Assembly: GCA_947247005.1 (NCBI GenBank)
Contig: OX365955.1
Coordinates: 19,139,322 to 19,203,321 of the forward strand
Source: Spisula solida
Taxonomy: Eukaryota; Mollusca; Bivalvia; Venerida; Mactridae
Length of the DNA: 64,000 nt
Direction: 5' to 3'
Shown: positions 14,201 to 56,000 of the stretch, one piece after another
How positions within the stretch are numbered: position 1 is the stretch's first letter
Layout: every line of letters starts with the position of its first letter
Position numbers and translations under genes: made by a program
The notes under the pieces: generated by a model
Told to the model about the DNA's origin: nothing
Databases searched by the model: none
What the model saw: only the letters and a program-made list of their open reading frames with translations

Positions 14201-17200
14201 CATTGGAAGGCATGGGGACTCCACGTAAAATTGTCCATATGATAATAACTATTTGAGATATTTCTTATGTGCAAACATATTTTGTAGTTTGATATGTCTA
14301 CAATATAATGCACTAAATTTCATAGTTGTATCTTTATGGGATCAACCCCCTTTTTAAAGGTTTTTAACATGACTATCACTCACATTGAACAAAGAATGAA
14401 ATGAACGGATTTGATATCAAACTTGGTTACTTTCTTGTCCGTAGTTCTTTTGTTTCTCGGGGAATATATTTTGTGCAAACTTGATTAATAGTTTAATTTC
14501 TTCCCGTCAGATTGGTGTTTTGATATAAGAAATGTGATAATTAGATCTGCCCCCTTTTTACGGTTTTTTAAAACAGGTATCATTTTTTTTTTAGTAAAAA
14601 AGTAATACACATATTTAATTTGCACATTGTTAATTGTTTTATGACGCGCCCGCTGCGATTGTCACAGCATGTGGGGTAATAAAAGTGGTACATTCGCGTG
14701 AAGGGTTATAACCGCTATATTTCTATAACCGCTATATTTCCTGTATACATACTTTATTATGATTTTAGAGATTTGAAACTTTGACTTTATTGCCGATTTG
14801 GAAAGGAATACATGCATTAAAATAATTAAAAGTGAAATGTCATAAGCTCATGCATAATTTAAAATTATAATAATCGAACAGGTGGGACATAAAAATGAAG
14901 AATCATGTCATTCCTATGACACTTGTTAAATAAACTGGTTAATTGACACGTTGTACCACCTAATTGAATATATACGAATTGTAAAATGAAAATTAAACGT
15001 CAAAAAAAGGTGAGAAAAAATCCGTATACTTTTAGAGGCATGAATTCAGATGTTGAAATGAATGTTTTACATTAAGGCAGATTAAATACATGTGCATTAT
15101 AGCTTTATGGTTCATTTACAGTATACATGTACTTGATTATATATTGCTAATAATATGCGTATCTTTTAATGATAATCACTTAACTATAGCCCGGCTAGAG
15201 GAATAAAGCGCGTCTGCTCTGACCAGACAGATTACGAAGCCAGTTGGGATTCGAACATTCTATATATTAATTAATCATATATATTAGGTTTTTTCTCCTG
15301 AAAATTTATGTTTTCCATCATTGTTATTTGTTATAAGCATTGTTTTATGCTTCATGCAAAGTAAATTTTCATATTCGTATAATAAGTATCATAAATATTT
15401 TTTTATCATACATGTATGGTCGCATCGCTGATACCTATAACCACAATGTAAAAATAAAACAGTAAGTATCATTCAAGATGCGTTTATATAAAGTTTCTAT
15501 CTGCCTTCTTTTTTCATTTGTAGATACAGCCTTTGTGCTATAATAAGACAATACATGTATTCGTAAACAAACCCCTGTAACTTTTATTGCGGGTGTCACC
15601 GGAAATTCCACGGACATATAACGCATCATAAATTAAGCCACAGTCTACAGTCTATATATTATACATGTAACACGTCTGATAAAAGCACAAATTCATATTC
15701 AGATATAAATTGCCGATGTGATTAAATCCATTTTAAGTATTTTACTCATTATTTTAAAAAATCAGGATGATGAATTGACTAGCATGATTTAACAGTCAAT
15801 ATATTATCACAATATATTTCATAATCGGGGAGTATCACGAAGTAGCTCGAGATGTAATAGAAACACAAATTTGAAATACCGATATCGCACGACTTGCTTG
15901 CGGAAATTGATATTCATGTATTCAAAGCAAGAACCTTGTAATATAGTCTTGCATAAAGGTCAGGTTCAGGTCAAAATAGCCAAACTACATTTTGTGATAA
16001 CTTGAAAATGAATATATGACTTTTAGGCACGCATGTTAATTAACGTGCGTGCTTTTTTTTTGTTGGTTATATGATTGATGTTATGATTTGATTAAAACAA
16101 TGAAAACTGATTTAGTATTTGTTTAACACTTCAACTCTTTATAACTTTGAAAGCACTTGTCCAACATAAATAAGTTGAACAAATGTTTCATCCCGATATC
16201 TTCAAAAAATATAATATTTGTGACAATTAGAGGGAAAATTTGAGTTTTGTCGGGTCCGCAAGCGCGCGAATATTCTCCTATTTAATTCAAGAAAAAAACG
16301 CTCTATTTCACGAACTTAAAATTGTCATAACTTTTTTATTTTTCAAGATATTAAAAAACCAGTTCCATAAGTGTATGGTCTATGGCTCGAAGATGCAACT
16401 GAACAATCAACCGTACAACATACTTGAAAAATCAGCAGTGGTTGCTAAATTGCATTTAAACTGTACTTTGTGATATTGCACACATACTCAAGCATTGTAC
16501 AGTTACTAGTAACCGTTTATTTTTTTATCATCCATCGAATATGCATGATAATAAGTATACATATCGTGACATGTATTGCGGTTACTAGTATAACAAATGC
16601 ATAATTGTTAGATTCCTCACACATGATCAACGAATTCTGAATGATACCATGGAAGCATTTAAATGTTCCTGATGATACCTACCTTATGAACAAAATTTCA
16701 TAATGACAGAGATATGCCCATAAAAAAGATCCTGGTATGCATCATATACAAAATGTCAAAAATACCAAAGTGTAACTGAACGCACAAAACCCCTCCAGCA
16801 AATGATATACATTAATTTATACACTCCGACAACCCGCTGAGTTAGCATAGCGCGATTACGCAATCGAGATAAGATCGATCAGATTAAAACCGGTAACTGT
16901 GGTCGACTTGAAAACACATTCAATACAAATGGGACAAATAGTTGGATATGTTTACCAGCTCTTATTATAGTATTACGCGAAGAAATTAGAACCTATTATG
17001 ACAGCTATTCATATCTTCGCTAGTATCCGTGTGATATGAAATAATATTGATCATACTTAAAATGGAGTTGTTATATGTACATGTATTTAAAATGGTTTAA
17101 ACATATTATATCAAATGAGATGATTATAGGTGATACTGTTGGAAATAAAAACCATGCACATGGTAACGATTCTAAGTAAGTAATTTACAATTACATGTAC

Positions 17201-27972: not shown

Positions 27973-29125
27973 ATGTCGCTGAGAGGGGTGCTTGAAACCA
28001 AAAAACATGGCGGCGCCCATGTTGTAAAACATGATCGGAACGGAGACTCGTGTGTGCCCCTCTCTGAGAGCTTCCTTGTCATACAATCACTCACTGATGA
28101 GGATACTACCGCATGTGACGAGGTGAGAAATCAAGATGGCCACCAGAAGATGCATGAGGGCGATGAAAATGGTCTCGGGGAAAATTTACCTTTCTTGCCT
28201 GAGCTCGGGACAGACTGCTTGGACAGTTACGATAGTGCTGTTGTGGAGAATAATACCGAATGGTTAAAAGCCAGATGTAAGAACTTCAGTCAGGTGGAGT
28301 TTGATATCACACCGCAAACAACGGGTGATGAAACCCTCGATTTTCCTGGTATTTCAATAGACAGCAGGGCTATTCTTCAAACAGAAGGCGACACTCATAG
28401 TTTTCCTACAGGTTCAGATGTGTCAAACAATTGTATCGATGAAAATCCAAAGATAAGTGCAGATGACAATAAAGTGCACATTAAAGGCAATGCATACGCT
28501 ACCCCGTATCTAACCTTGCCTGCTGCCCAGACACCAGAACACTCGTCTGAGAACACCGGTGTGAATAACACAATGACATTACGGCATTCAATGGATACTT
28601 CATTAGAAAATGTCATAATGCATGCCGTAGGAGGACAAAGTTCTGGAGAATTATACGACGGCTCAAATGGTATTTTAGTTCAGTGCGATTCAAGTAACTT
28701 ACAATCCAAACTTGTCTTGACTGAAAATGGTTTGCTTACGGTTGTGCCAAGTTTATCAGGAACAGTTTCTAGTCAGGAAAATAATGTGATTACTCAAGCA
28801 ATTACAGCACCAAGTCAGGAGACGATGCCAATAAAACAAGAGACATTATTGAACTCCAATGTACAGACTGTGGTGTCAGATCAACAAAATATTGGGGAAA
28901 ACCTCGCACTCACGACTATCTCCATTGCAACAGATAAAATGAGCAATTTAACCAAGATTCTTGTGAACACAAGTCAAGGTCAACAAATGTATCATCTTAA
29001 TATATCGGACCTAACCAGAGCTCAGACTGCGGGTACTGTCAATGATAAGGAGGAGTCTAAGCCAGTGTCCCTGGTCTCTATGCCTATGGTCACACCGATG
29101 TCAGTGACGCAAGCATCTAATCAAA
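27973..29125 (+). CDS. ZXDC: ZXD exon 1 (N-terminal disordered region)
   Basis: About 384 codons from [16 protein letters not shown] to ASNQ. The open frame begins 162 bp earlier but has no ATG there, only GTG at 27811. The donor is at caaa|gtaact: it gives phase 1, which exactly fits exon 2, whereas the frame's stop at 29182 lies inside a SINE-like sequence. Acidic and Ser/Thr-rich (for example [12 protein letters not shown]), with MPIKQE as a possible SUMO site. No known domain. Confidence 0.8.
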
Positions 29126-32100
29126 GTAACTACAATACACTGTTTTTAGCTGTGGTCCAGTGGGCTGGAATTGTTTCCCAGTAATCTGGGTAACGGTTTG
29201 ATTCCCTGTCGCGGCATGTCAAATATCCTTCCATGAAAATTTGACAACTTTGTTGCTTTTCTCCAGATTTCAAGAACTAACTAACCAGTGCCTAGTGGAA
29301 GGGTATAAAGTGAGTACTGGCCATCCCAGGAAAACTGGTTTGGGTGAATTGGCTGCTGTACATACATTATAACTGAATTTTTTTTGAGAAATAGCGATAA
29401 ACCAGAAAACATTGATATAGGGATGATTGGTGAATGTTTGTTCATTTGCTTAAAAACCAAGATTTGCAATTCTATGAAATCATTATTTGACTGAACCGAC
29501 TTCAAGGCCTAGCTACTATAATAAAGGTTTTTAGCCTTAAACAAATTGATGTCAGTATGTGATGGTTGGGTGACATGGGTTTCAGTTATCCTATGGCATC
29601 CACATGTGGGAGGTTGTCAGTGACCTGATCGTGAAGTAGGTAACTAGGTTGTCAGCGATCTCATCGTGAAGTAGGTAACTAGGTTGTCAGCGATCTCATT
29701 GTGAATTAGGTAACTAGGTTGTCAGCGATCTCATCGTGAAGTAGGTTGTCAGCGATCTCATAGTGAAGTAGGTAACTAGGTTGTCAGCGACCTGATCGTG
29801 AAGTAGGTAACTAGGTTGTCAGCGATCTCATCGTGAAGTAGGTTGTCAGCGATCTCATCGTGAAGTAGGTAACTAGGTTGTCAGCGATCTCATCGTGAAG
29901 TAGGTAACTAGGTTGTCAGCGATCTCATCGTGAAGTAGGTTGTCAGCGATCTCATCGTGAAGTAGGTAACTAGGTTGTCAGCGATCTCATCGTGAAGTAG
30001 GTTGGCAGCGATCTGATTGTGAAGTAAACATTCTTCCTCATTATGCAAAAATTGTTTTTATAAATAGATCTAATTGGGTAGTGACTAGTCAGTAGTGGAC
30101 TGGTTGTTAATTAATTCTAGGATGTATTTTAAGAATAAGAGGTCTTGAATGGCCACTGTATGTATATGACAGGTCACAGAAATTGTTGAAAGATGGTATA
30201 AAACATGATGAACCCAACACATGTAACTATGACTTTCTCAAGGTTTAGAATCACATGTGCTTCACAATCTTGTGTTTGTAATCTTTCAGATGTGTTGTTA
30301 TTACCTGTAAAAGGTGAAAGTAATGGTTTGGTGACGTCCCCGGTGAAGGTGAGTTTGTGAAGTCTTATTCCCAGTATTGACAGGGTTGCCACAGACTCTG
30401 GAAAACAGGGAAAATGCCAAAAACAAATTTCCTGCAGGGAATTTCAAAATTGAATAAAAAGCAGGGAATTTAAAAAAAATGGAGGATACATGTGTCTACT
30501 GGTAGCTTGTCTTCATGATTTTATTAAATAAATGTATTTCTTCAAACAGACTGTAAGTAACATGTTATTATTATAAGATATGAATAAATAATGAGTTTGG
30601 TGGTGAAGATACATGTTTATAAGAGGAGAATTCAGGTAACTTTTCAGCTGTATCTGAAATGCAAACACCGCTAACAGTCAGGAAAGAGTCCGGGAATTTC
30701 ATGCTTCATTTTCTGTGGCCACCCTGATTGAGTATAAATTAAGTGACATCCTGTTAATCTGGAGATATTTCAAATTCATTGATCTGTAACAGGGTTTAGA
30801 TATATATAAGAGCTCTTTGAGAAAGCTAACATATTCACCACTCCAGGGGTGAAGTAGGGGCTTCTCTAGAGGCTGAATATCAAGGTTCATTTTGATCCAG
30901 TTTCTACTTGTTTTTACCATTTATTAGCTTAAATATCTATAATGTATAAATACCCTTCTGTCAGCATTGCAAAAAGTATTTGATTAATTGAGCCTAGAAG
31001 ATATAAATATTGATGACTCGGTGTTGTGGGAAGTGTTGTAATACTATATGAAGATGTACTAACTTGTCTGACTACTATTTCAGGATGGCAGTGTGACGGG
31101 TAAGGAGAAGGGGAAGGAACAGTTATATCTCTGTAGTTATGAACAATGTGGTAAACTCTTCAAAACTCTCTCCAAGCTACAAGTACATAACATGACTCAT
31201 ACAGGAGAACGACCATATAAGGTTAGATGCTAGCTTCAATTTACTCAATTCTTCGAGGTTTCTTTTGGCCCTTAAAATGGTCCATTGATCACTGAATTTC
31301 CCTAAAGCTACATTTAAAACTGGTATAGACTCTAGGTGCAGCATTGTTTCAGGTCTTGTGGCAAGTCTTCTCATGGAAACATGACTCATCAATTATTTAC
31401 TGACAGAACAAGTCCAGACTGTTCAGAGAGTTGACCACTCTACGGTTACGTGGACAAATTAACCTGATGTGTTAACATTATATTTAGTCCCCTACCGGTT
31501 TTTGACCAGCGTGGACTATAGGTTTGCCGTCTGTCATTCCGTCAAAAAATCTGGATTCTGACATTACTTAAACAGTTTCCAAGCTAGGTTTATGAAACTT
31601 GGTATGTGGATAGGGGACAATATGGGGATAATGCACGTCCAAACACATTTTGATTCCGACCAAAATTGTGGTTGCTATGGCAACAGAAACATTAAAACCG
31701 GTAGGGGACTTCTGTATTGCTTGCAATTCTTAATTACTTGTTTATCTTTGTCCTTCTATTTTATTTGTGGTATTTTAAGTGTGCACAAAATATACTTCAT
31801 TATGTAATGTGATCATCCATTAAAAGGGCCGATATTGCTTTATTTTTTCACTGAAATTGATATATTCTTCATAGGACCTTGTAATATATTTATGCATAAA
31901 GGTCAGGATCAGGTTTAATCCGTTTATACAAAATATACTTCTGAACAAAATCAATAAAACAATGTGTACATGTAGGAGCAAAATAGGTTCTTCATACCTT
32001 CATTGTAGAGCTTAGCTGCTAGCAGAATGTCATTTAGCACATTCAGGTTATGGTTAGTGTTTGTTAGAGCATGAATGATGTATATCTACTGTATGTGTTC

Positions 32101-35100
32101 CAGTGTTCAGAACCAGGCTGTGATTGGGCATTTACCAAGTCATATAAACTAAAGAGACATGAGGAATCTCATAAAGGCAATAAAGACTATGTGGTATGTA
32201 TCTGACTTCTTCCTGCCTTATCTTGAACTCTTTACTCCATAGGGATGTGTAGTGTTCGTATTCAATATTTGTATATTTGACTTTGTACATTGAAATTTTG
32301 AACATTGAAATTTTGTTTGTCAAAGGCCCATATTATAGAAGATTGCATTATTGTAAATATGTTAACCTCGTAAAATAAATACTTTACTTACTTATGTACC
32401 TTTGAAAGCAACATAAATGAATGTGATTATTGACACATAAAAGGTACATTAAGTTGCATGTGTTGTCATAGTAACTTGTGATATATGAATCCATAATTGT
32501 TTGTATTTAACATACAAATATATTATATTATTTTGGTATTGTATACATCAGCGAAATAAAATAAACACTAATGCATTCAGCTGCTGAAAGTACCTTGATT
32601 AGGTTCTCAGGCGAGGAAATACCATTTTCAATGTGGCGGTTGATTCTATTTCAAACAAATGATTAGCCGGTTTCAGAATATTGAAATAGTCGCGGTCCTA
32701 ATCTTGTGTTTATATTTTAGTGTCAGTTCTGTATGAAGAAGTTCACTACAGTGTATAACTTACGTACTCACGTCAAACAACACAGTAGACCTTGTACTGA
32801 AGAATGCCCAGCCAAAGATTGTGGTCTCAAATTTCAAACAAGACGAGAACTCGACAGACATATGAAAACTCATGAAGGCATTGAAAAAACTTACAAGTAG
32901 GTTAAGTTTGATCTTGTATGGACGTATATGTGAAGGAAAGTCTGGCTGATTGCAACCTGGATTATTATACCCGCAGATACAAAGTTTATGGCAGCTATGT
33001 TGGAGTCATGCTTGTGGTTTGTTGGTTGGTTCATCCAATTTTGTCCGGGCTATTTCTCTGTAACCATTGGTCGGATTTCAACGAAACTTTGCATGACTCT
33101 TCAGCTCCAAGCCTAGTTGTGCAAAGACAAAAACACATGATTGTAAACGAAAATCAAACTTCAAACCAAAATCTTGTGGGTTAAAATGTGGCTTTGTGGA
33201 AATTTCAAGGGTCAAAACCCCTACTCCCGAAGCAAATAGAACCCATGCCACCACCATATCACAATGACCCACATGCCACAGCAGAATGTTTGGTTAAGGG
33301 AATGTTTTGATTGGTTAAGATATTCCCTCATTGTAGCACTATATTTGATACTGAGTTATTGTACTAGATTATGTTGATATGTTACAGATGTCCGTACGAA
33401 GGATGTAACAAGTTATTGTACTAGATTATGTTGATATGTTACAGATGTCCGTACGAAGGATGTAACAAGTTATTGTACTATATTATGTTGATATGTTACA
33501 GATCTCGTACGAAGGATGTAACAAGTTATTGTACTATATTATGTTGATATGTTACAGATCTCGTACGAAGGATGTAACAAGTTATTGTACTAGATTATGT
33601 TGATTGGTACAGATATCCGTACGAAGGATGTAACAAGTTATTGTACTAGATTATGTTGATATGTTACAGATGTCCGTACGAAGGATGTAACAAGTTATTG
33701 TACTATATTATGTTGATATGTTACAGATGTCCGTACGAAGGATGTAACAAGTTATTGTACTAGATTATGTTGATATGTTACAGATGTCCGTACGAAGGAT
33801 GTAACAAGTTATTGTACTATATTATGTTGATATGTTACAGATGTCCGTACGAAGGATGTAACAAGTTATTGTACTATATTATGTTGATATGTTACAGATG
33901 TCCGTACGAAGGATGTAACAAGTTATTGTACTAGATTATGTTGATATGTTACAGATGTCCGTACGAAGGATGTAACAAGTTATTGTACTATATTATGTTG
34001 ATATGTTACAGATGTCCGTACGAAGGATGTAACAAGTTATTGTACTAGATTATGTTGATATGTTGCAGATGTCCGTACGAAGGATGTAACAAGTTATTGT
34101 ACTATATTATGTTGATATGTTGCAGATGTCCATACGAAGGATGTAACAAGTTATTGTACTACATTATGTTGATATGTTACAGATGTCCGTACGAAGGATG
34201 TAACAAGTTATTGTACTACATTATGTTGATATGTTACAGATGTCCATACGAAGGATGTAACAAGTTATTTCTCTCACCTCACTGTTTGGGTTCCCACCCC
34301 AGAGTACATCAAGCAGAACCTCAGGATTTAACCTGTCAATACGAGGGCTGTGGTCGCAAGTTTGATAAGTTATGTCGTCTCAAACAACATCAACGAACGC
34401 ACACGGGAGAGCGACCATATGCATGTCACTTTGCGGTAAATATAATATTCTACTTGTTGTCTTTACAGAGTTGAGATATACGAGTAAATATATGGGTTAA
34501 GATACTTTACATACATTTCAACTATAAACTGCACATTGTCAAGTTCAGTTTTGGCCCTGATTGAGATCAATATAATCCTATATAGGTATTTACAATTATT
34601 AGTAACTTCAAAGAAGTAAAATAATGTACATTGCTATCTGTAGTTTATAGTTCAAATTAATGTAAACATACCTAACCTAGATATATAGTATGGTTTTATG
34701 AAAACATGGGTATGACTAGGGTCTAGGGTCAGTTTGATAATTTATCATTTCTTAGCCTAATGTAAGCCAAAATGCCAATTTGTGAGTGTGACGAAAAGTG
34801 TCAATATGGTGTTGATGTTATACATCATGTGCAATTCTATATTTACAAATGTTATATTAAATCAGCCCAGCTTATGCTTATAAATGTAGGACAGTTATCA
34901 GACTTGTGTCTGTATCATTAGTTGTCATACAGCATTGTGGGCAATATTAACATGGATGACCTTTGGTTAACCTCATGTTGACCTTTGGTTACCATAGCAA
35001 CACTCCAGGGCCTCCTGTTTGTAAGGCTAAATAGAGAGGTAGTATTGTGTGTTGTACAATAATGATTAATTAAATATAAATGTATTATATCTTTAGAATA

Positions 35101-38100
35101 TTTAGCTTGTCTGTTTTAAACATATTTTGATTTGTTGGTAGGCAGATACTGTAAACCAATTTACTTTGCAGTCTAACTTTCACGTTTTGCTGAGTGTCGG
35201 CCCTGTGCCCTCGTATGCAAACGTAGGACAGTTATCCGACTTATGTCTGTATCATTAATTGTCATACAGCATTGTGGGCAATATTAACATGGATGACCTT
35301 TGGTTAACCTTGTGTTGACCTTTGGTTACCATAGCAATGCTCCAGGGCCTCCTGTTGGTAAGGCTAAATAGAGAGGTAGTATTGTGTGTTGTACAATAAT
35401 GATTAATTAAATATTTAGCTTGTCTCGTTTTGAAAACAAAGTCTTTATTATATATCTTCCATTCAGTGGAAGTTGAGGTATATTGACTTGTTAGTAGGTA
35501 GTTACTATATAATCATGCTATACATGTGTTAATTTATTCGTCTAGTCGTCTGATCTTGTTCGAACCATAGCTTTTTATCTTTTGTGGTACTTAAGAATAG
35601 CTTGGCATATTTGTTTACCTCCGTGAAACAAGAGTGCCACTCTCAAAAACCATGTAAATATCTCAAAAGTCAAGGTCACATTGTCTGGACCGAAGTTTTT
35701 TACTGTCTTGTGATTTTGTTGACAGGCATCTAGGACAAATGTCACACCGTACTGTGGGCAATCTTAACATGGATCTCTGTTGTGGAAATTTAATACCATG
35801 CTGGTATACAAGAGATCCATGTTGTGGAAATTTAATACCATGCTGGTATACATTTCAGCCATTCTCCAGGTAAACCAGGCTTAATGGCCAAATATGAAAA
35901 TCATGATAAACGAACGTTAGAAAGGCATGACTCTTATGAACAGTGTCTGAAAATGTCAGCAAAATATAACATCCAATTACAAAGTTACAGATCTTTAAGA
36001 CTAACCACATCCGACTTCTTTTTGAATGTCATCACAAACGTAATTTGACATAACGTTAATAAGCATTTCAAACAGACATTAATTGATAAATTCTTGACAT
36101 AAAATTTTATCATGTTTAAGACTTATATTCTTATTTCAATTAACATAAAAAATGTGAATATTTGCTTTTAGAGAAAAGTGGTACATGTAATTGTTTTTAA
36201 CAATTAATCCCTCTTTTTTCTCAATATGGGTATTTGTCAGAAAGGGTCACCATAGCAACGACAGAAGATATTTTAATATAATTCACAAGAATTAATAATT
36301 CTAGACATAGAACATTATTTTACAAGTACTTTAAATTAATCCAAAGAGCATGACTCTTATTTTCCACATTTAGGAGCTTTTCTATACCTAATTACATAAT
36401 TACAATATAATGTCACTAAGCCCAGTTTTCCTGGAAAACGGCTCATTGATATGTACTAATGTTACTTACTTCAGCCCAGCGCCCTCGCATGCTTATGTAG
36501 GACAGTTATCAGACTTGTGTCTGTATCATTAATTGTCATACTGCATTGTGGGCAATATTAACATGGTTGACCTTTGGTTAACCTTGTGTTGACCTTTGGT
36601 TACCATAGCAACACTCCAGGGCCTCCTGTTTGTAAGGCTAAATAGAGAGGTAGTATTGTGTGTTGTACAATTATGATAATGTACGTTTTTGTAATAACTG
36701 CAATATTTTGTTTGTAAATAAGTCTGTGTTATACACTTCATGACACTCCCAATGCAACACCTATATTCTTCATGGTAGATTAATAAATGCATAGTTAACT
36801 GATGCTTCCCTGCAATATTTTTACATGAAGTCATTTTTGTGACTTTTTGATTTACAGTGATGCTCATTATTTGGTTTTATTGTTATCTTTCAATTAACTG
36901 ATTTGCATATAAATTCTAGAAGGCATGCAAAGAATATTATTTCATTCACATTCCAAATTATAACTTAATATCTATTGATTAATAGTTGAACTCCGGGAGT
37001 GTGATTAAGTGTATAATGTCTGTCTATGTTAGAGATATATGTGTTAATGGTTATTACTGTTGTATATTAAATCTAGGGTTGTACCTGGGCATTCTCCACG
37101 GCCAGCAAACTGACCAGACATATGACTAAACATACAAACAAACGTAAATGGGTGTGTAATGAGTGTGGGAAGGCATTTCTACGAGCAGAACATCTCAAGG
37201 GTCACATGATTACACATACTGGGATACGACCTTTCAAATGTCCTGTAGAAAGTGAGTACATTATAACAAGGCATCTCCTTGTCACTTTCTTCTATTCATG
37301 CTTTTACTGCAGTTAGCTTGCTGTCTTATTGTATCATGAACTGAACAGGGTTTTTTTGCATGTGCACAGTTATTTGTTGACAAGGACATTTTATGTCCTT
37401 TAGTTTTAAAGATGAAATAAACACATGAACATCTCGTCTTTTTGTATGTATACTTCAAAAACCATGGCTCGAAAACAATTGTTAATTTCCATCATGCAAC
37501 CATTTTGTATAGTGGCCTTCACCTCTATGAACAAATGAAAATGTTATCATCAGAATTGTCAATTCTGATTGGTTAGTCTATAAATAGCATTCCAGAAATC
37601 TCCTCTTTCTATTGGTTCACAAAGAAATTTCATAGGGGGTTTTTCCCATCAGATGTGCAGAAAATGGCGGACATCTGTTTCATTCATTCTGTTGCAATAA
37701 ACTTTAATCATATGTAAAATGTAAACACATGTCAGTAATGTATTATATTGTCTGTACAGAATGTGCTCAGAAGTTTGTATCCAAGAGCAGTGTGTATGTT
37801 CATCTAAAAAAGCATGAGAAGGCGGACCGTGAAGTTACGTACCATTGTCCAATGGATTCCTGTGATAGAAAGTATAACACTAAGGCTAAACTACGTCAGC
37901 ATATACTCAAACATTTCCCGGGTACCCTGAAACCTGAAGATGCTACCAAGATTGATATTGTACCATTGTTCAAGAATCAAGGTCAGGAACAGAAGAAGTC
38001 TGAGGAAACGATTGTTACACCTGTAGCTGTCAATGTGAAAAGTATGTATTCTATAATTATTCTGGGTTGTGGTTCCAGGGCAATGTTTTACTGTAGATCT

Positions 38101-41100: not shown

Positions 41101-43540
41101 GAAAGCAAGTATGGCAGCCCCTGTAAACTTTACATATTTATTGGTGTATTGTTCATTTATTCATTGGGGATTTAATTTCGTGTTTAAGGTCATCCTTGAA
41201 ATCCATGAAATTAAGTCCCCAATGAATATTAATGATTTTTGAGTATGATGATATATGATGTAATGTTTGTAGATAATGATCGTGGTGGTTCGGCACGTAC
41301 AGACTATCATAGCAACAAATTGTTGAGTGAACGAGCAAGAAAAAGACGGAACTTATTACGAGAGAAAGCGGAGGGCAGTTCAGTATCAGAAGGTCAGTAT
41401 TCAGTATACTGGGTTATCATATCCTTCACACCTTTCGTTCACCAAGTTTTCTATTGGAACAAATAGGTATTAGGCTAATGGTGCTAGCTTTCAGGTATAT
41501 ACCTGATTTCAGGTTTTTGAGTGTATCAAAAAGTATGGTTTTCTTTATTTTCTCTATAAATTGACAATTTTATAGGATTTCAGGTCTTTCAGAATTTATT
41601 ATGTGCACTTGTGTAGGTTGGCTTAATGGAAAGCTTAATCTTTTAGTAAAAAAACTTTTAAAAATTGATGTTTATATTCACAGTTCACTAGCTAACAGCA
41701 AAAAGTTGAAGTATAGAATGTATTAATTTAATTGAGTTCTTGCAGCCACAAAAGAAACACTATACTATAAAGTAGATGTTTTTTCTGTCTGGTCTATGTT
41801 TATGCCTTCCATAAAAAACACAGATTGTTTTATTTTTTGGCAATGCTTGTCGCCTTCATAAAAACACAGATTGTTTTTGTTTTAGTTTTTGGCAATGCTT
41901 GTCGCCTTCATAAAAAACACAGATTGTTTTAGTTTTTGGCAATGCTTGTCGCCTTCATAAAAAACACAGATTGTTTTAGTTTTTGGCAATGCTTGTCGCC
42001 TTCATAAAAAACACAGATTGTTTTAGTTTTTGGCAATGCTTGTCGCCTTCATAAAAACACAGATTGTTTTAGTTTTTGGCAATGCTTGTCGCCTTCGTAA
42101 AAACACAGATTGTTTTAGTTTTTGGCAATGCTTGTCGCCTTCATAAAAAACACAGATTGTTTTAGTTTTTGGCAATGCTTGTCGCCTTCATAAAAACACC
42201 GATTGTTTTAGTTTTTGGCAATGCTTTTCGCCTTCATAAAAAACACAGATTGTTTTAGTTTTTGGCAATGCTTGTCGCCTTCATAAAAACACAGATTGTT
42301 TTAGTTTTTGGCAATGCTTGTCGCCTTCATAAATCACAGATTGTTTTAGTTTTTGGCAATGCTTGTCACCTTCTTAAAAACACAGATTGTTTTAGTTTTT
42401 GGCAATGCTTGTCACCTTCATATTCTCCAGTTAATGTTATATAAACACTTGAAGTACATTTTGAAGCAATGTCCTCTGGTGTGTAAGTGCTCTGTTTGGC
42501 AGTAAATAAAGTTGACTGACCTTATTATATAACTTGTATGTATGCTGTTATATATTGTGTTTATAGATATAGCAGAACAAGAACAGAATGGTTTATCATC
42601 TGATCAATCAACTTCTAACCAGCTCAGTTCACATGGTATAACATTTAGAGATCCTGAAACAGGAGTTCTTTATGTACAGATGCAGCTTTTACAGGTAATT
42701 TCATTATTTTATCACATGATTTCCTTATATCCAAGTTAGTATACCGACACTAGTGTAGCTAATATGACGTCACTTCATCTCCTAAATGACGTCATTATAT
42801 CCCGTAAACGGTAAATGATGTTATTTTTGGCTTCGTTTATGTAACCGGCTCAGTTTTTTCAACAGAAAGATGTGTATTTTTGTGTTATTAGTGTCTTATG
42901 ATTAAAAGAGTTTAACTCTTGTTGTCAATTGATACAAACTTATTCAGGAAATAGTATAAAGCTCATCACACTTACACTTCATTATCACGAATACAGGCCA
43001 AATTGCACAGTGGAATACAATGCAACAGAATTCATTTTCTGTATCATACATGTCTGGTTTTCCGTATCCGTATGATGCATGTCTGATTAGCTATATGTTG
43101 AACATATGCCAACATTATGGCTTAAACATTTACCCTTTATGAATAGATGTTGCATTGTATGCCAAAAATATGCTGACGTTCATGACGTCAATTTGCAGGC
43201 TCTGCGAAAAGTTTTTAAACTTGTCAGTCAAAATTGGTAAAATGATTGAATGTGCCTCTTTGTCTATTAGACCTAATACAGGCTTTTCGGTTGGTCAGAA
43301 TCCAAATTGTCAGTCACGACTTGACGACTGACAGTTTGCGTGGAGCCTGATTTGTAAAAAGAAACTATGTTTTAATTACAGGATGACCCGCCGCACCCTG
43401 ACCTGTATGGGGAAGATAACGTTCTCAATGGACATCTAGATATATCGCAGGCTTCTAACGATTCCGATATGGAAGATGAAGATGATGATGATACACAATT
43501 TGTCGGATCTACCATTAATCTACAGGATCTTGTCGGATGA
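27973..43540 (+). CDS. ZXDC: ZXD-family zinc finger transcription regulator (13 exons, complete)
   Basis: Exons: 27973-29125, 30290-30348, 31084-31221, 32104-32193, 32721-32896, 34240-34435, 37077-37251, 37760-38041, 38696-38752, 39749-39916, 41273-41392, 42567-42694, 43382-43540. They sum to 2901 bp (966 residues plus stop) and every junction keeps frame. The N-terminal third is acidic and Ser/Thr/Gln-rich with no folded domain. Ten contiguous C2H2 fingers follow, many with the extra residues of the C-x4-C type (CSYEQC, CSEPGC, CPYEGC, CQYEGC, CPVEKC, CPMDSC). The C terminus is polar then acidic (MEDEDDDD) and ends NLQDLVG. Ten fingers of this form are the hallmark of the human X-linked duplicated ZXDA/ZXDB/ZXDC family, nuclear proteins known to cooperate with CIITA in MHC class II transcription. 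That role is vertebrate knowledge and may not apply here. IKQE in exon 1 fits a sumoylation consensus. First in-frame ATG chosen; an upstream untranslated exon is possible. Confidence 0.87.
29145..29285 (+). mobile_element. SINE-like tRNA-derived fragment
   Basis: ggtccagtgggctggaattg followed by cccagtaatctgggtaacg and ggtttgattccctgtcg resembles a decayed tRNA head with A- and B-box positions. It begins about 20 bp after the exon 1 donor. No target duplication found, so only moderately sure. Confidence 0.5.
29600..30027. repeat. 36-bp minisatellite with shorter variants, about 13 copies
   Basis: Units ggttgtcagcgatctcatcg + tgaagtaggtaacta, with shortened units lacking ggtaacta interspersed, in intron 1 of the ZXD gene. 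The higher-order mixture of long and short units suggests several duplication rounds. Confidence 0.93.
30290..30348 (+). CDS. ZXDC: ZXD exon 2 (59 bp)
   Basis: Acceptor taatctttcag, donor aag|gtgagt. It enters in phase 1 and leaves in phase 0, encoding [19 protein letters not shown] after the split codon. The only role visible is as linker before the fingers. Confidence 0.8.
31084..31221 (+). CDS. ZXDC: ZXD exon 3 (zinc finger 1)
   Basis: Acceptor tatttcag, donor aag|gttaga. A lysine-rich lead (KEKGKEQ) then finger 1: [19 protein letters not shown] followed by NMTH and the linker TGERPYK. Phase 0 at both ends. Confidence 0.9.
31486..31745. repeat. Dispersed repeat bounded by cctaccggt
   Basis: Begins tagtcccctaccggtttttg and ends accggtaggggacttctg, an inverted pair; the rest matches a longer copy at 47820-48240 (gacttctgtattgcttgcaa shared exactly). 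In ZXD intron 3. Its plus-strand frame is incidental. Confidence 0.8.
31815..31925. repeat. Diverged fragment related to the 2.8-kb TIR element
   Basis: ccgatattgc...aaattgatatattc...accttgtaatat...tgcataaaggtcagg parallels the segment at about 15880-15970 of copy 1 with many changes. No TIRs here; an old fragment. Confidence 0.5.
32104..32193 (+). CDS. ZXDC: ZXD exon 4 (zinc finger 2)
   Basis: Acceptor gtgttccag, donor gtg|gtatgt. Finger 2: [19 protein letters not shown] then EESH, followed by KGNKDYV. Phase 0 at both ends. Confidence 0.9.
32721..32896 (+). CDS. ZXDC: ZXD exon 5 (zinc fingers 3 and 4)
   Basis: Acceptor tatattttag, donor acaa|gtaggt. Finger 3 is [20 protein letters not shown] then H; finger 4 is [20 protein letters not shown] then KTH. 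It leaves in phase 2, so the next exon's first base completes the Lys codon before CPYEGC. Confidence 0.9.
33155..33246 (-). repeat. Inverted partner of the intron 8 repeat
   Basis: About 90 bp (ttcaaaccaaaatcttgtgg through ctactcccgaagcaaat) is the reverse complement, with modest divergence, of 38447-38540. The two lie in introns 5 and 8, on either side of exons 6-8. Confidence 0.75.
33358..34264 (+). repeat. 57-bp minisatellite containing splice acceptor and exon 6 start, about 16 copies
   Basis: Each unit reads ttatgttgatatgttacag, then atgtccgtacgaaggatgta, then acaagttattgtactagat or a variant: intron end, AG, and the first 25 bases of exon 6. Copies 3 and 4 carry a 2-base deletion; copy 5 is shorter. 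Units before 34050 often contain tactag (an in-frame stop); the last three have tat or tac instead, so the frame is open from 34052 into exon 6. Confidence 0.95.
34240..34435 (+). CDS. ZXDC: ZXD exon 6 (zinc fingers 5, 6, start of 7)
   Basis: The acceptor is the last of about 16 repeated ones (gttacag at 34233-34239); donor gcg|gtaaat. Finger 5 is [19 protein letters not shown] then PRVH; finger 6 is [19 protein letters not shown] then QRTH; finger 7 begins CHFA. The last acceptor is chosen because it gives a normal finger 5 with the TYKCPYEGC junction. Acceptors at 34069, 34126 and 34183 would also keep frame but add 57, 38 or 19 residues. Confidence 0.88.
34860..36690. repeat. Three dispersed copies of a 190-210-bp repeat in ZXD intron 6
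   Basis: Copies at about 34866-35075, 35200-35415 and 36474-36680, same orientation. Each contains gtaggacagttatcagac, catacagcattgtgggcaat (or a near variant), cctttggttaacc and ctccagggcctcctg. Identity is high except in the tails. The first two are about 340 bp apart, the third about 1.3 kb away. Confidence 0.9.
37077..37251 (+). CDS. ZXDC: ZXD exon 7 (zinc fingers 7 to 9)
   Basis: Acceptor taaatctag, donor gaaa|gtgagt. It completes finger 7 ([19 protein letters not shown]), encodes finger 8 ([18 protein letters not shown] then ITH) with linker TGIRPFK, and begins finger 9 (CPVE). Enters phase 0, leaves phase 1. Confidence 0.9.
37760..38041 (+). CDS. ZXDC: ZXD exon 8 (zinc fingers 9 and 10, then linker)
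   Basis: Acceptor gtctgtacag, donor gaaa|gtatgt. Finger 9 finishes as [18 protein letters not shown]; finger 10 is [19 protein letters not shown] then ILKH. Then [18 protein letters not shown], a segment after the last finger that is likely conserved in the family, and a Lys/Glu-rich stretch. Confidence 0.88.
38447..38540 (+). repeat. Intron 8 repeat, inverted relative to intron 5 copy
   Basis: ggttccatttgattcgagag through cacattttgacacttaag matches the reverse complement of 33155-33246. See that entry. Confidence 0.75.
38696..38752 (+). CDS. ZXDC: ZXD exon 9 (57 bp)
   Basis: Acceptor cacttttag, donor acag|gtaagt. It encodes [18 protein letters not shown] between two split codons. Hydrophobic/acidic motif NIDPLEF, which could be a co-regulator contact (inference). 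Confidence 0.82.
39272..39705. mobile_element. Candidate hAT-like MITE
   Basis: The left edge agggctgggtaccgccagg and right edge ataccgcacaccact are roughly inverted, and gataccaaggttacc-type motifs recur inside. No clean target duplication was found, so boundaries are approximate. In ZXD intron 9. Confidence 0.45.
39749..39916 (+). CDS. ZXDC: ZXD exon 10
   Basis: Acceptor tgattctag, donor caag|gtaaac. It encodes [20 protein letters not shown] and ends KKSQSAQ. Polar; the repeated TAELTAELT is helix-favouring. Phase 1 in and out. Confidence 0.83.
40033..40360 (+). mobile_element. tRNA-derived SINE with 10-bp target duplication
   Basis: Head ggtggccgagtggttagccc (A box) and cctagtttgaatctcag (B-box position) resemble a Ser/Leu-type tRNA. 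The body runs to aaaaacaatt. The perfect duplication acctgtcatg at 40023-40032 and 40361-40370 defines both ends. In ZXD intron 10. Confidence 0.88.
40765..41045. repeat. Dispersed repeat with (gtcc/gtccgtcc) stretch
   Basis: Begins ttatgcccccctatcgatag and ends near ccacagggggcataagcg; the outer ttatgcccccc and ggggcataa are inverted. Contains a ccgtccgtccgttcgtccg run. Probably a decayed TIR element in ZXD intron 10. Confidence 0.65.
41273..41392 (+). CDS. ZXDC: ZXD exon 11
   Basis: Acceptor aatgtttgtag, donor gaag|gtcagt. It encodes [20 protein letters not shown] then [15 protein letters not shown]. The RARKRR cluster is a plausible nuclear localisation signal. Phase 1 in and out. Confidence 0.85.
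41815..42425. repeat. 45-47-bp minisatellite, about 14 copies
   Basis: Units cacagattgttttagttttt + ggcaatgcttgtcgccttc + ataaaaa with small length changes in the A run. In ZXD intron 11. Open frames over it are by-products. Confidence 0.95.
42567..42694 (+). CDS. ZXDC: ZXD exon 12
   Basis: Acceptor gtttatag, donor acag|gtaatt. It ends [20 protein letters not shown]; the [11 protein letters not shown] segment reads like a conserved structured motif, upstream of which is a Ser/Gln-rich linker. Phase 1 in, phase 0 out. Confidence 0.85.
43382..43540 (+). CDS. ZXDC: ZXD exon 13 (C terminus)
   Basis: Acceptor tttaattacag; stop TGA at 43538-43540. It encodes [20 protein letters not shown], an acidic run MEDEDDDD and the end [10 protein letters not shown]. 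An acidic C terminus fits an activation role. Its last 20-odd bases are the founder unit of the repeat that follows. Confidence 0.87.
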   Translation, partial: DDPPHPDLYGEDNVLNGHLDISQASNDSDMEDEDDDDTQFVGSTINLQDLVG

Positions 43541-49890: not shown

Positions 49891-51241
49891 CTATGGTGTA
49901 TTGGTATGTTTTATATTGTACACGATAGCAGTTTTCGAATCTCTCATTGTGCATATGAGAGAACACCGTAACCAGTCATAGTACATAGTGTGTAAGTTAC
50001 GTATGCCATCTTCCTTCTCAAGCAAAGACCTTACATAATGTCCTTGTTCAGTCAGTGCAAACACATTATGTGAGCTCCAACCACCAAGGAAGATTTGTCC
50101 CTCAGGACCATCACTGACAGACATTGGATTGATCATGTGGGTGAAGTTACAACACTTCAGACATGTTCCATTCAGGTCAAACACGACTAAGTTACTGATA
50201 CTATCTGCTACATACAATCGTGATCTTGCCACCACAACGTGTCCAGGGTAGGACAAATTCTCAGAGAATAGTTTTAATGGTTCACCAGATTGATTGTAAA
50301 CCTCTATATGACCCATACCTTCTTTCTTCAACCTATTACCACCACAAGCCACATAAAGCAACTCTCCATAGAAAGATATACCTCGACATGCATCTCCTGT
50401 TTTAAACGATGATGACAAGGTCAAGTTGCCTTGAATGTTGACATATTGTACGGAACGACTATTGGTTATAGTAACAGCGACCTTATAGTCGTCAACACTG
50501 CATACATCATACGGATGATCTGGTAAATATAGATTGTATTTCACTTTATATGCCTGGTTGAAACATTTTAAACTTGAATTCTCCCAATCAGTCATTACAA
50601 CAAGTTTATTGTTCAGCATACAAACACCACTAATGGTTGGTACAACACGGTCTATCGATAAACAAACATTGATCACTTCTTTTTCACCCAATATTGGACA
50701 TGACGGTTCGACGACAATACTTCCAATGCTTTTAATGCCGTCAATACATGCTACGGTTGATGTATCTGGACGAAAGTATACGTGCCCGGCTGTTCCCGTG
50801 TTAACAGATTCCTGTAAACCTCTCACTTGAGTTATTGTCATTTCTGCCAGCTTGGCCTGGACAAACTTTGATGAATCGTTTCCATCCCTCATAATGGTCG
50901 TTAGGTCGTTCTCTTCTTTTCGTAGCATTGTCACAGCCTCTACAAGAACACGTTTGTCACCATCGATTACTGTCTTAGTTGTTTCAAACTTCTTGTCCAG
51001 GTCACTTAGAAGACGTTCCTGTAGTACATCTAGACGTTTGTTTACCAATTGGCGTATTGTATCAAATTTATTATGAATTTCAGCTTTTTCTGCTTGCAAC
51101 GTGTCTTCAGCCTGTTCTTTTTTCCTAATGCCACGTTCGAATGACTTTTCTAAGGTAGTTATTCTCTGGAGAATATTCCCAGTGGTATGACTGGATTTAT
51201 GTTCAAAGAAATTCGGAATGTATATCATCTGCGAACACCGA
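49891..51241 (-). CDS. TRIM-like exon 2 (coiled coil and propeller)
   Basis: Acceptor gtatttcag at 51242-51250; stop TGA-side end at 49891. The open frame extends 32 bp further to an internal ATG (51273), but splicing at 51241 joins the B-box: CAT TG|T CGG gives HHCRCSQMIYIPNF, completing the zinc ligands. Single exon for all of the coiled coil and propeller, usual for this group. Confidence 0.85.
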
Positions 51242-51768
51242 CTGAAATACAAACCACACTGAAATGATAGCATGCTCTAACATTGAACTATGAAGGTATG
51301 TGGCTATTTGGCATGTTCTGCGTATATAATTAGGTGATATAAAATGGTGGGATGTAACTTTAATTTACTATGTTAGGAAAACATTTAATGCCATTTACAT
51401 GCAGTGTCATATACCGTAATGTCAGGCATATAACCGTTAGAATAGCTGGTGGCTCGTCAACCAGCTAACAGAACGGACGCTTTCCTGGAACCTTCCAAGA
51501 CCACCCAGGCCGACCCCCTTACCACTCAACTAACATGGTCCTTAGACTCATTACTAGTATCCGATACCATAAACCTATCCATGAACATAGTTTTACTAGT
51601 ATATTATGTGTATGAATGGTATTGCGATACTTACCAATGGTGAACAGCCACGCAGACGACACAGCAAACCTCATCATGTTGGGGACAGTACATCTCTAAT
51701 AGTTTACCTTCATGTATAGAACACCTCTGTACGGGTAAACCAAGCCTCGTCTGAAATACGTGCACCAT
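49891..51768 (-). CDS. RING-less TRIM-like protein: B-box, coiled coil, C-terminal beta-propeller
   Basis: Two exons, 51768-51635 and 51241-49891, 1485 bp, about 494 residues. From the N terminus: a B-box-2 zinc site with CSIHEGKLLEMYCPQHDEVC, then CVVC and VAVHHC. Its last ligands come from exon 2. Next comes a long coiled coil (TTLEKSFERGIRKKEQAEDT to about residue 200, with NKRLDVLQERLLSDLDKKFE). The C-terminal half has propeller-like blades: LYVACGGNRL, GHVVVARSRLYVADSIS, NLVVFDLNGTC, GPEGQIFLGGWSSHNVFAL. Such proteins are related to TRIM56/TRIM71-type E3 ligases, and RING-less forms are abundant in bivalves, often thought to act in innate immunity (family knowledge, not shown here). ATG at 51766-51768 is chosen: it is in frame nine codons before the first zinc-binding Cys, and no RING-like sequence lies upstream. 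Confidence 0.82.
51635..51768 (-). CDS. TRIM-like exon 1 (start and B-box)
   Basis: ATG at 51766-51768, donor attg|gtaagt at 51634. It begins MVHVFQTRLGLPVQRC and carries the B-box Cys/His ligands. A possible acceptor (tatttcag) at 51751 could instead receive an upstream exon, which would remove MVHVFQ; no such exon was seen. Confidence 0.78.
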
Positions 51769-53002: not shown

Positions 53003-56000
53003 TAGTGATGTACCGATTATCGGATAACATCGATTTAATAGTGGTGTGCAGAAGTCAGCCGATTTCGATGATCGATGTCATTCATCCATAATCGATCATC
53101 GGATAAATATAACAAAATGTTAAACAAGACTTATTTAATCAAAAATTTCTAGGAAAATTTCAAAGCATGGAAGTTTGAACCAATTGGATGCCTGTTAGAA
53201 CCAATTCAAAGAATTTGTCATATCCAACTATTTGTCCCATTTGTATTCGCACATGTGACAATTTTTTTACCATTGGAAGGCATGGGGACTCCACGTAAAA
53301 TTGTCCATATGATAATAACTATTTGAGATATTTCTTATGTGCAAACATATTTTGTAGTTTGATATGTCTACAATATAATGCACTAAATTTCATAGTTGTA
53401 TCTTTATGGGATCAACCCCCTTTTTAAAGGTTTTTAACATGACTATCACTCACATTGAACAAAGAAGGAAATGAACGGATTTGATATCAAACTTGGTTAC
53501 TTTCTTGTCCGTAGTTCTTTTGTTTCTCGGGGAATATATTTTGTGCAAACTTGATTAATAGTTTAATTTCTTCCCGTCAGATTGGTGTTTTGATATAAGA
53601 AATGTGATAATTAGATCTGCCCCCTTTTTACGGTTTTATTAAACAGGTATCTTTTTTTTTTAGTAAAAAAGTAATACACATATTTAATTTGCACATTGTT
53701 AATTGTTTTATGACGCGCCCCGCTGCGATTGTCACAGCATGTGGGGTAATAAAAGTGGTACATTCGCGTGAAGGGTTATAACCGCTATATTTCTATAACC
53801 GCTATATTTCCTGTATACATACTTTATTATGATTTTAGAGATTTGAAACTTTGACTTTATTGCCGATTTGGAAAGTAATACATGCATTAAAATAATTAAA
53901 AGTGAAATGTCATAAGCTCATGCATAATTTAAAATTATAATAATCGAACAGGTGAGACATAAAAATGAAGAATCATGTCATTCCTATGACACTTGTTAAA
54001 TAAACTGGTTAATTGACACGTTGTACCACCTAATTGAATATATACGAATTGTAAAATGAAAATTAAACGTCAAAAAGGGTGAGAACAAATCCGTAGACTT
54101 TTAGAGGCATGAATTCAGATGTTGAAATGTATGTTTTACACTAAGGCAGATTAAATACATGTACATTATAGCTTTATGGTTCATTAACAGTATACATGTA
54201 CTTGCTTATATATTGCTAATAAGATGCGTATATTTTAATGATAATCACTTAACTATAGCCCGGCTAGAGAAATAAAGCGCGTCTGCTCTGACCAGACAGA
54301 TTACGAAGCCAGTTGGGATTCGAACATTCTATATATTAATTAATCATATAAATTAGGGTTTTTTCTCCTGAAAATTTATGTTTTCCATCATTGTTATTTG
54401 TTATAAGCATTGTTTTATGCTTCATGCAAAGTAAATTTTCATATTCGTATAATAAGTATCATAAATATTTTTTTATCATACATGTATGGTCGCATCGCTG
54501 ATACCTATAACCACAATGTAAAAATAAAACAGTAAGTATCATTCAAGATGCGTTTATATAAAGTTTCTATCTGCCTTCTTTTTTCATTTGTAGATACAGC
54601 CTTTTTGCTATAATAAGACAATACATGTATAAACAAACCCCTGTTACTTTTATTGCGGGTGTCACCGGAAATTCCACGGGCATATAACGCATCATAAATC
54701 AAGCCACAGTCTACAGTCTATATATTATAACAAGTCTGATAAAACCACAAATTCATATTCAGATATAAATTGCCGATGTGATTAATTCCATTTTAAGTAT
54801 TTAACTCATTATTTTAAAAAATCAGGATGATGAATTGACTAGCATAATTTAACAGTCAATATATTATCACAATATGTTTCATAATCGGGGAGTATCACGA
54901 AGTAGCTCGAGATGTAATAGAAACACAAATTTGAAATACCGATATCGCACGACTAGCTTGCGGAAATTGATATTCATGTATTCAAAGCAAGAACCTTGTA
55001 AAAATAGTCTTGCATAAAGGTCAGGTTCAGGTCAAAATAGTCAAACTACATTTTGTGATAACTTGAAAATGAATATATGACTTTGTTGGTTATATGATTG
55101 ATGTTATGATTTGATTAAAACAATGAAAACTGATTTAGTATTTGTTTAACATTTCAACTCTTCATAACTTTGAAAGCACTTGTCCAACATAAATAAGTTG
55201 AACAAATGTTTCATCCCGATATCTTGAAAAAATAAAATATTTGTGACTATTAGAGGGAAAATTTGAGTTTTGTCGGGTCCGCAAGCGCGCGAATATTCTC
55301 CTATTTAATTCAAGAAAAAAAACGCTCTATTTCACGAACTTAAAATTGTCATAACTTTTTTATTTTTCAAGATATTAAAAAACCAGTTCCATAATTGTAT
55401 GGTCTATGGCTCGAAGATGCAACTGAACAATCAACCGTACAACATACTTGAAAAATCAGCAGTGGTTGCTAAATTTCATTTAAACTGTACTTTGTGATAT
55501 TGCACACATACTCAAGCATTGTACAGTTACAAGTAACCGTTTATTTTTTTATCATCCATCGAATATGCATGATAATAAGTATAGATATCGTGACATGTAT
55601 TGCGGTTACTAGTATAACAAATGCATAATTGTTAGATTCCTCACACATGATCAACGAATTCTGAATGATACCATGGAAGCATTTTAAAAATGTTCCTGAT
55701 GATACCTACCTTATGAAGACAGAGATATGCCCATAACAAAGATCCTAGTATGCATCATATACAAAATGTCAAAAATACCATAGTGTAACTGAACGCACAA
55801 AACCCCTCCAGCAAATGATATACATTAATTTATACACTCCGACAACCCGCTGAGTTAGCATAGCGCGATTACGCAATCGAGATAAGATCGATCAGATTAA
55901 AACCGGTATAACACCAGTCAAGGGAAGGTAACTGTGGTCGACTTGAAAACACATTCAATATAAATGGGACAAATAGTTGGATATGTCAAACTCAGATAGT

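What the first reader, a model, noticed from the sequence alone, without database searches (positions are those of the whole stretch)
33358..34435. Sixteen tandem copies of a splice acceptor plus exon start in the ZXD gene
The 57-bp repeat spans the intron 5/exon 6 border, so each copy carries a complete pyrimidine-tract/AG and the first 25 bases coding for CPYEGCNK. The period is 19 codons. The three copies nearest exon 6 have lost the TAG found in many outer copies, leaving an open frame from 34052 into exon 6. Acceptors at 34069, 34126, 34183 and 34240 would therefore give proteins differing by 19-residue blocks inserted before finger 5. Outer acceptors would meet stops. The array could be a tunable acceptor or merely tolerated slippage; the stop-free inner copies are the hint of selection.
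Basis: partly seen in the sequence, partly recalled or inferred. Interest (0 to 1): 0.85.

Follow-up and report, generated by a model that had tools for sequence, protein, structure and literature searches.

The report
Minisatellite spanning a clam splice acceptor
In a clam zinc-finger gene a 57-base stretch that holds the end of an intron and the start of the next exon has been copied sixteen times in a row; it looks like a young, probably tolerated repeat expansion rather than an evolved switch, but it is a good natural test of how cells choose among near-identical splice sites.

Summary
Sixteen head-to-tail units (13 of 57 bp, three of 56 bp) lie at 33354-34262; each carries the acceptor AG and the first bases of an exon of a ZXD-like zinc-finger gene. 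Acceptors 13-16 read open; 1-12 hit stops. The "hint of selection" fails: TAG is in 7 of 16 units, and three TAG-free inner units have P = 0.15. Best reading: a young minisatellite, founded on a 7-bp AGTTATT lying by chance in intron and exon 57 bp apart, captured the splice acceptor, and the innermost acceptor still makes the normal protein. Of 253 retrieved proteins 26 matched a pattern for this junction and 25 have no insert; none of the 253 has the block's marker words. Such arrays cover about 6% of the window and of 190 kb sampled from its genome, which chromosome sizes suggest is Spisula solida, so one on a splice site is unsurprising. Donor-side counterparts are known in human (IFI6, ABCA7); my eight topic searches listed no acceptor-side array. 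Which acceptors are used is untested: no RNA data could be reached.

The parts
33354..34262 (+). minisatellite: 16 units (13 of 57 bp; units 3, 4 and 5 of 56 bp); a 57-bp unit = 34 bp of intron end + 23 bp of exon start
   Evidence: single locus in the genome
33354..33360 (+). left AGTTATT, proposed founding microhomology (intron side)
   Evidence: 7 bp or more at 57-bp spacing at 313 of 186,186 random places
34263..34269 (+). right AGTTATT, proposed founding microhomology (exon side)
34240..34435 (+). exon 5 from the innermost (canonical) acceptor; fingers 5 and 6, 196 nt
   Evidence: junction TYK|CP as in 13 of 13 aligned relatives
34069..34239 (+). stretch from acceptor 13 to acceptor 16: acceptors at 34069, 34126 and 34183 would add 57, 38 or 19 residues in frame
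34046..34048 (+). TAG of unit 13, the innermost in-frame stop
33388..34068 (+). stretch read first by acceptors 1-12, which lead to stops after 12-50 residues; units 3-5 carry one-base deletions
32721..32896 (+). exon 4 (fingers 3 and 4) with donor CAA|GTAGGT, phase 2
   Evidence: an ORF from another record (P0121) leaves the finger-4 homology at the same KTYK
27973..29103 (+). coding part of exon 1 from a proposed start codon; the 3' border is not settled (29103 is one of several GT candidates)
31084..31221 (+). exon 2 (finger 1)
32104..32193 (+). exon 3 (finger 2)
37077..37251 (+). exon 6 (fingers 7 and 8), donor AAA|GTGAGT, phase 1
37760..38041 (+). exon 7 (fingers 9 and 10), donor AAA|GTATGT
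   Evidence: read from the sequence; the end printed (38039) is two bases short

Best explanation
A young minisatellite has captured the 3' splice site of intron 4 of a clam ZXD-like gene. Step 1 (inferred from sequence): a 7-bp AGTTATT present by chance in the intron and, 57 bp on, in the exon let slippage or unequal exchange duplicate the segment between them, which contains the acceptor and the first 23 exon bases. Step 2 (inferred): the pair expanded to 16 units by the same process, with local copying of variants. Step 3 (inferred): the gene still works because the innermost acceptor, next to the true exon and 196 nt from the next donor, makes the normal protein. The next three acceptors can make minor isoforms with 19, 38 or 57 extra residues before finger 5, and the outer twelve make mRNAs with early stops, which nonsense-mediated decay should remove. 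The array is tolerated, not selected.
For: Shown: array anatomy and the 7-bp repeat at both borders (313 of 186,186 random places match as well). Units outside the last stop are as well kept as those inside: units 1, 2, 6, 8 and 11 equal the majority sequence of the thirteen 57-bp units, while each of units 13-16 has one to three changes. Neighbours share variants (3 = 4; 13 and 14 share G31; 15 and 16 share C14). Minisatellites are common here: 10 arrays, 6.3% of the window, and 20 arrays, 6.4%, in 19 stretches of 10 kb of the same genome, though 10 of those 19 have none. With 557 bp of founding units and 16 assumed splice sites about 0.14 hits per such window are expected by position alone. 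13 of 13 aligned relatives, and 25 of the 26 proteins of 253 that matched a junction pattern, join TYK to the finger-5 cysteine without insert. None of the 253 has the block's words LLYYI or YYIML.
Against: No RNA evidence: use of acceptor 16 is argued from relatives. One relative, a predicted Pinctada imbricata protein (P0032), has 20 unrelated residues at exactly this junction, so inserts there may be real and tolerated, unless it is a gene-model error. The ancestral intron flank (TTGAT and CTGAG at about -40 and -34) now sits next to unit 1 only, while unit 2 and unit 16, the two others examined, have exon-derived GTAAC at about -37; a strict yTnAy scan of three inner units finds only TTGAT 10 nt from the AG. 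So the outermost acceptor may keep the best branch-site context, contrary to step 3.
Confidence: 0.72

Rival explanations
1. Tunable acceptor: the four open acceptors are used in regulated proportions and give ZXD isoforms with 0, 19, 38 or 57 extra residues before finger 5, with copy number under selection.
For: Four consecutive acceptors open and in frame; period is 19 codons in 13 of 16 units; a predicted Pinctada protein has a 20-residue insert at this junction.
Against: P = 0.15 for the stop-free inner run; none of 253 retrieved proteins has the block's marker words; the block has three or four cysteines and no histidine, so cannot form a C2H2 finger by itself; periods divisible by three in 4 of 10 arrays of the window, about what chance gives. 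Pfam is no test here: in the long exon it matches only finger 6, below its cut-offs, and not even the genuine finger 5.
Confidence: 0.08
2. Decoy ladder: outer acceptors are used often, because they are transcribed first and the outermost keeps the ancestral branch region. Copy number therefore lowers ZXD protein through nonsense-mediated decay, and the long allele is a mildly harmful variant segregating in the population, masked by the other haplotype.
For: Twelve of 16 acceptors give early stops; the 20 bases before the exon are identical in 13 of 16 units, so position must largely decide; the ancestral flank adjoins unit 1; the assembly that matches by size represents one haplotype of one animal (passages of PMC11101916); in human ABCA7 VNTR length goes with lower expression and more exon 19 skipping (passages).
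Against: No expression or haplotype data. Acceptors 1-12 need internal exons of 424-1048 nt, longer than usual (recalled rule). In ABCA7 retention of one repeat unit did not change with VNTR length (passages), which speaks against a simple ladder effect.
Confidence: 0.15
3. Assembly or sequencing error in the copy number.
For: Tandem arrays can collapse or expand in assemblies (general knowledge).
Against: The array is 0.9 kb, shorter than HiFi reads usually are (recalled); the assembly that matches by size was built from 31-fold HiFi data (passages); unit variants give distinct landmarks. The reads were not seen.
Confidence: 0.05

Closest known systems
IFI6 (6-16) minisatellite, human
   Same: Repeat units at an exon border that serve as extra splice donors and give several mRNAs (one passage of PMC4526556; the word minisatellite is from the title of Turri et al. 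1995, seen only in reference lists).
   Different: Donor side, not acceptor side; usage is reported there, untested here.
ABCA7 intron 18 VNTR, human
   Same: 25-bp VNTR that starts at the splice donor of exon 18; one isoform retains exactly one unit by a donor in the next unit; VNTR length goes with exon 19 skipping and lower expression (passages of PMC5954066).
   Different: Donor side and intronic; a 25-bp unit breaks the frame whereas 57 bp keeps it; there unit retention did not depend on VNTR length.
Polyubiquitin UBC and VCX3A dual-specific splice sites in tandem repeats, human
   Same: Splice sites repeated with each tandem unit, so that varying numbers of units are spliced in (passages of PMC10809524, which counts 792 introns in 262 tandem repeats).
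   Different: There one motif serves as both donor and acceptor inside the array; here the donor is outside the array and GT motifs in the unit look weak by eye.
NAGNAG tandem acceptors (recalled)
   Same: Adjacent alternative acceptors that add whole codons.
   Different: Spacing 3 nt, two sites; here 55-57 nt and sixteen sites.

Membership tests
ZXD zinc-finger proteins | ten consecutive C2H2 fingers in the ZXD order | tested here: met
   Ten finger units read by eye across exons 2-7; Pfam counts 9 stretches of PF00096; among the best-listed relatives several are named ZXDC or ZXDC-like, such as Mercenaria 77%, Haliotis 55-56% and Lingula 52%. Ten as the family number is recalled.
ZXD zinc-finger proteins | one gene, distinct from the other C2H2 genes of the genome | tested here: met
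   The gene's own two exons match at 98% and 97%; every other listed place is at most 54% identical; 150 of 2085 candidates were scored and not all 235 matches are listed.
minisatellite | near-identical tandem units of roughly 10-100 bp | tested here: met
   57-bp period, 16.1 copies, 97% matches; one locus.
minisatellite (VNTR) | copy number differs among individuals | not testable with these tools
   One assembly held.
splice-site-bearing VNTR (IFI6, ABCA7 kind) | each unit carries a splice-site consensus | tested here: met
   16 of 16 units have CAG|AT; the 20 bases before the exon are the same in 13, units 13 and 14 have one change and unit 5 a deletion. The tract is weak.
splice-site-bearing VNTR (IFI6, ABCA7 kind) | more than one unit's site is used in RNA | not testable with these tools
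   No RNA reads; no protein with the block's words among 253 retrieved.
dual-specific splice-site repeat | unit holds a usable donor as well as an acceptor | tested here: inconclusive
   Seven GT sites listed over one unit and its border, the most donor-like by eye GAT|GTAACA; no donor score was computed.
NAGNAG acceptors | acceptors 3 nt apart | tested here: not met
   55-57 nt apart.

The most novel reading that the evidence does not exclude
A copy-number-set splicing rheostat on the acceptor side: each added unit adds a decoy acceptor ending in a stop, the innermost four give graded insertions before finger 5, and the number of units in an animal sets both how much ZXD protein is made and in what mix of lengths.
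Probability: 0.1. Interest if true: 0.75.

Novelty: new variant of a known kind. Interest (0 to 1): 0.4.

Why it matters
Sixteen near-identical acceptors in a row at one intron are a natural version of a duplicated-splice-site experiment: sequence is nearly constant, so position, branch-site context, exon length and quality control must decide which is used. If several are used, one repeat would change protein length and dosage of a likely transcription factor among individuals. If only the innermost is used, it shows how strongly position protects a gene from repeat expansion across a splice site.

Tried and rejected
Selection on the stop-free inner units: rejected, P = 0.15 by counting and 0.149 by shuffling.

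RNA hairpin hiding the acceptor: TGTTACA before the AG pairs with TGTAACA in the exon part. The 37-nt piece folds somewhat better than shuffles (z -1.90 to -2.25 for the four units given of 16), and the whole array has z -2.84 with 0 of 20 shuffles as good, but the piece was chosen after seeing the pairing and the circularised unit gives z 0.11. Not used as evidence. Hairpin potential as a general driver of arrays in this window: 1 of 10 arrays is below 0.05.

Structure prediction of the long form of exon 5: single sequence, mean pLDDT 51.5, uninformative; no fold search was made. Pfam on that form: only sub-threshold matches at finger 6, so it cannot tell whether the blocks fold.

Retrocopy that would reveal the spliced form: none seen; apart from the gene's own exons every listed place is at most 54% identical (150 of 2085 candidates scored, list cut short).

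Unlisted matches were not inspected.

A first translation of the junctions was one base short at the exon 4 donor and gave false stops everywhere; one search replaces it. In one search six relatives print an insert of 74 because the pattern began at an earlier K-x-YK; their printed strings show TYK next to CP, and I count them as having no insert.

Literature: eight topic searches and two for the species. Only the listed rows were seen (at most 20 of up to 1,407 papers). They led to donor-side arrays and no acceptor-side one. Passages of PMC7556508 (rodent and rabbit seminal genes), PMC7536079 (prawn lectins) and PMC3618361 show no acceptor repeated with each unit. The original IFI6 paper (PMC306954) is not held. 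The library is open-licence papers only, so absence is weak.

Full report
Observation. Tandem Repeats Finder reports a 57-bp array of 16.1 copies at 33354-34269, 97% matches. Cutting at each AGTTATT gives 16 full units, 13 of 57 bp and three (3, 4, 5) of 56 bp, and a last AGTTATT that runs on into the exon. A 57-bp unit is 34 bases of intron end, closing in TTACAG (TTGCAG in units 13 and 14), and 23 bases of exon start; unit 5 has lost an intron base, units 3 and 4 an exon base. The array is a single locus: the query matches 17 times in the 932-Mb genome, each time inside it.

Gene. Exons 2 to 7 carry ten C2H2 fingers by eye, with nine PF00096 stretches called. The closest proteins are from Mactra antiquata (81% over the query; 90% in the alignment), Ruditapes philippinarum and Mercenaria mercenaria; several of the best-listed relatives are named ZXDC or ZXDC-like. 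The genome has 931,988,947 bases in 36 contigs, and its longest contigs met (69.03, 65.06, 64.99, 58.71, 58.36 Mb) come close to the chromosomes printed for Spisula solida (69.04, 65.07, 65, 58.72, 58.36 Mb; 932,108,243 bp in 38 scaffolds; passages of PMC11101916). S. subtruncata does not fit (longest 75.87 Mb, 151 scaffolds; passages). The match is close, not exact, and the species name is an inference.

Frame. Exon 4 ends in ACTTACAA|GTAGGT, phase 2. Joined to each acceptor in turn, numbers 13 to 16 (34069, 34126, 34183, 34240) read open to the end of exon 5, and numbers 1 to 12 stop after 12 to 50 residues. One added unit inserts 19 residues that hold the two cysteines of the finger start, one or two more from the intron part, and no histidine. 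Pfam says little: in the long exon it matches only finger 6, below cut-off, and misses the genuine finger 5.

Is there selection? The TA codon is TAG in 7 units, TAT in 7 and TAC in 2. Three TAG-free units at the inner end have P = 0.15. Outer units that can only give stops are at least as well kept as inner ones: units 1, 2, 6, 8 and 11 equal the majority sequence, units 13-16 each differ from it. That is what recent copying gives. The three units with a one-base deletion are all outer ones, as a constraint on inner units would also predict, but units 3 and 4 are identical and probably one event, so there are two events among twelve, too few to test.

Origin. Both borders carry AGTTATT: in the intron as ACTG-AGTTATT-GTAC and in the exon as AACA-AGTTATT-TCTC. 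A match of 7 or more bases at 57-bp spacing occurs at 313 of 186,186 random places outside arrays. The simplest account is that this chance repeat set the unit, so that it straddles the splice site for no functional reason. Variants shared by neighbours (3 = 4; 13 with 14; 15 with 16) fit local duplication.

Background. The window has 10 arrays with period 25 or more and at least 2.9 copies, 6.3% of its bases. Nineteen stretches of 10 kb taken from the same genome at round coordinates have 20 such arrays, 6.4% of bases or 6.7 arrays per 64 kb, unevenly spread: 10 of the 19 have none. The ten founding units of the window sum to 557 bp; against 16 assumed splice sites of this gene (eight acceptors found, eight donors supposed) about 0.14 hits are expected per window by position alone. 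Across a genome of this size many arrays should therefore touch splice sites unless selection removes them; that extrapolation is mine.

Splicing. The acceptor is weak: 10 of 18 pyrimidines, longest run 2, the shortest run of eight acceptors scored though not the lowest fraction. Units are nearly alike, so choice must depend mostly on position. Two forces pull apart. Exon definition (recalled, not tested) favours inner sites: exon 5 would be 196 nt from the innermost acceptor and 1048 nt from the outermost. Branch context may favour the outermost: unit 1 has the ancestral flank with TTGAT and CTGAG at about -40 and -34, whereas units 2 and 16 have exon-derived GTAAC at about -37, and a strict yTnAy scan of three inner units finds only TTGAT 10 nt from the AG. 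No branch site was mapped. Which force wins is the open question.

Relatives. In an alignment with 13 relatives, 13 of 13 join TYK to the finger-5 cysteine directly. Of 253 proteins held, 26 matched a pattern for this junction; 25 have no insert and one, a predicted Pinctada imbricata protein (P0032), has 20 unrelated residues there. None of the 253 has the words LLYYI or YYIML of the block. A 111-residue ORF from another record (P0121) loses its homology right after the same KTYK, which suggests that the intron position is old.

Comparison. In human IFI6 repeat units serve as extra splice donors (one passage of PMC4526556). Human ABCA7 has a 25-bp VNTR that starts at the donor of exon 18, with an isoform that retains one unit; exon 19 skipping rises with VNTR length, but unit retention does not (passages of PMC5954066). 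Polyubiquitin and VCX3A splice through sites repeated in each unit (passages of PMC10809524). New introns with weak sites can be hidden from selection by nonsense-mediated decay (abstract of PMC2809761), the kind of shelter proposed here for the outer acceptors. The clam case is the acceptor-side form, with a unit that keeps the frame. The listed rows of eight topic searches showed no acceptor-side array, in a library of open-licence papers only.

Verdict. RNA data would settle it.

Noticed in passing
window 29611-30026 and 41804-42422: Two further minisatellites at the same gene: one between exons 1 and 2 (35/62/97-bp periods), one downstream of the exon that starts at 41273 (46/47-bp periods).
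   Followed up: partly
window 34860-35079, 35197-35416, 36471-36690: Three direct copies (two of them 87% and 90% like the third) of a 220-bp sequence in the intron after exon 5, perhaps a dispersed or locally duplicated element.
   Followed up: no
window 14707-14740 and 53777-53810: The same 17-bp sequence TATAACCGCTATATTTC occurs as a perfect tandem pair at two places 39 kb apart, which hints at a dispersed repeat.
   Followed up: no
window 49891-51276 (-): 461-residue open frame with one sub-threshold NHL repeat match (17.2 bits against a cut-off of 20).
   Followed up: partly
window 31057-31083: The exon 2 acceptor has a perfect TACTAAC before a better tract, in contrast to the weak acceptor captured by the array.
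   Followed up: no
P0032 (Pinctada imbricata): A predicted ZXD-like protein has 20 unrelated residues at exactly the junction where the clam array lies: a gene-model error, or a second case of an upstream acceptor in this intron.
   Followed up: no
window 33354-34262: Units hold TGTTACA and TGTAACA as inverted arms that can pair around the exon part or the intron part; strength not clearly above chance.
   Followed up: yes
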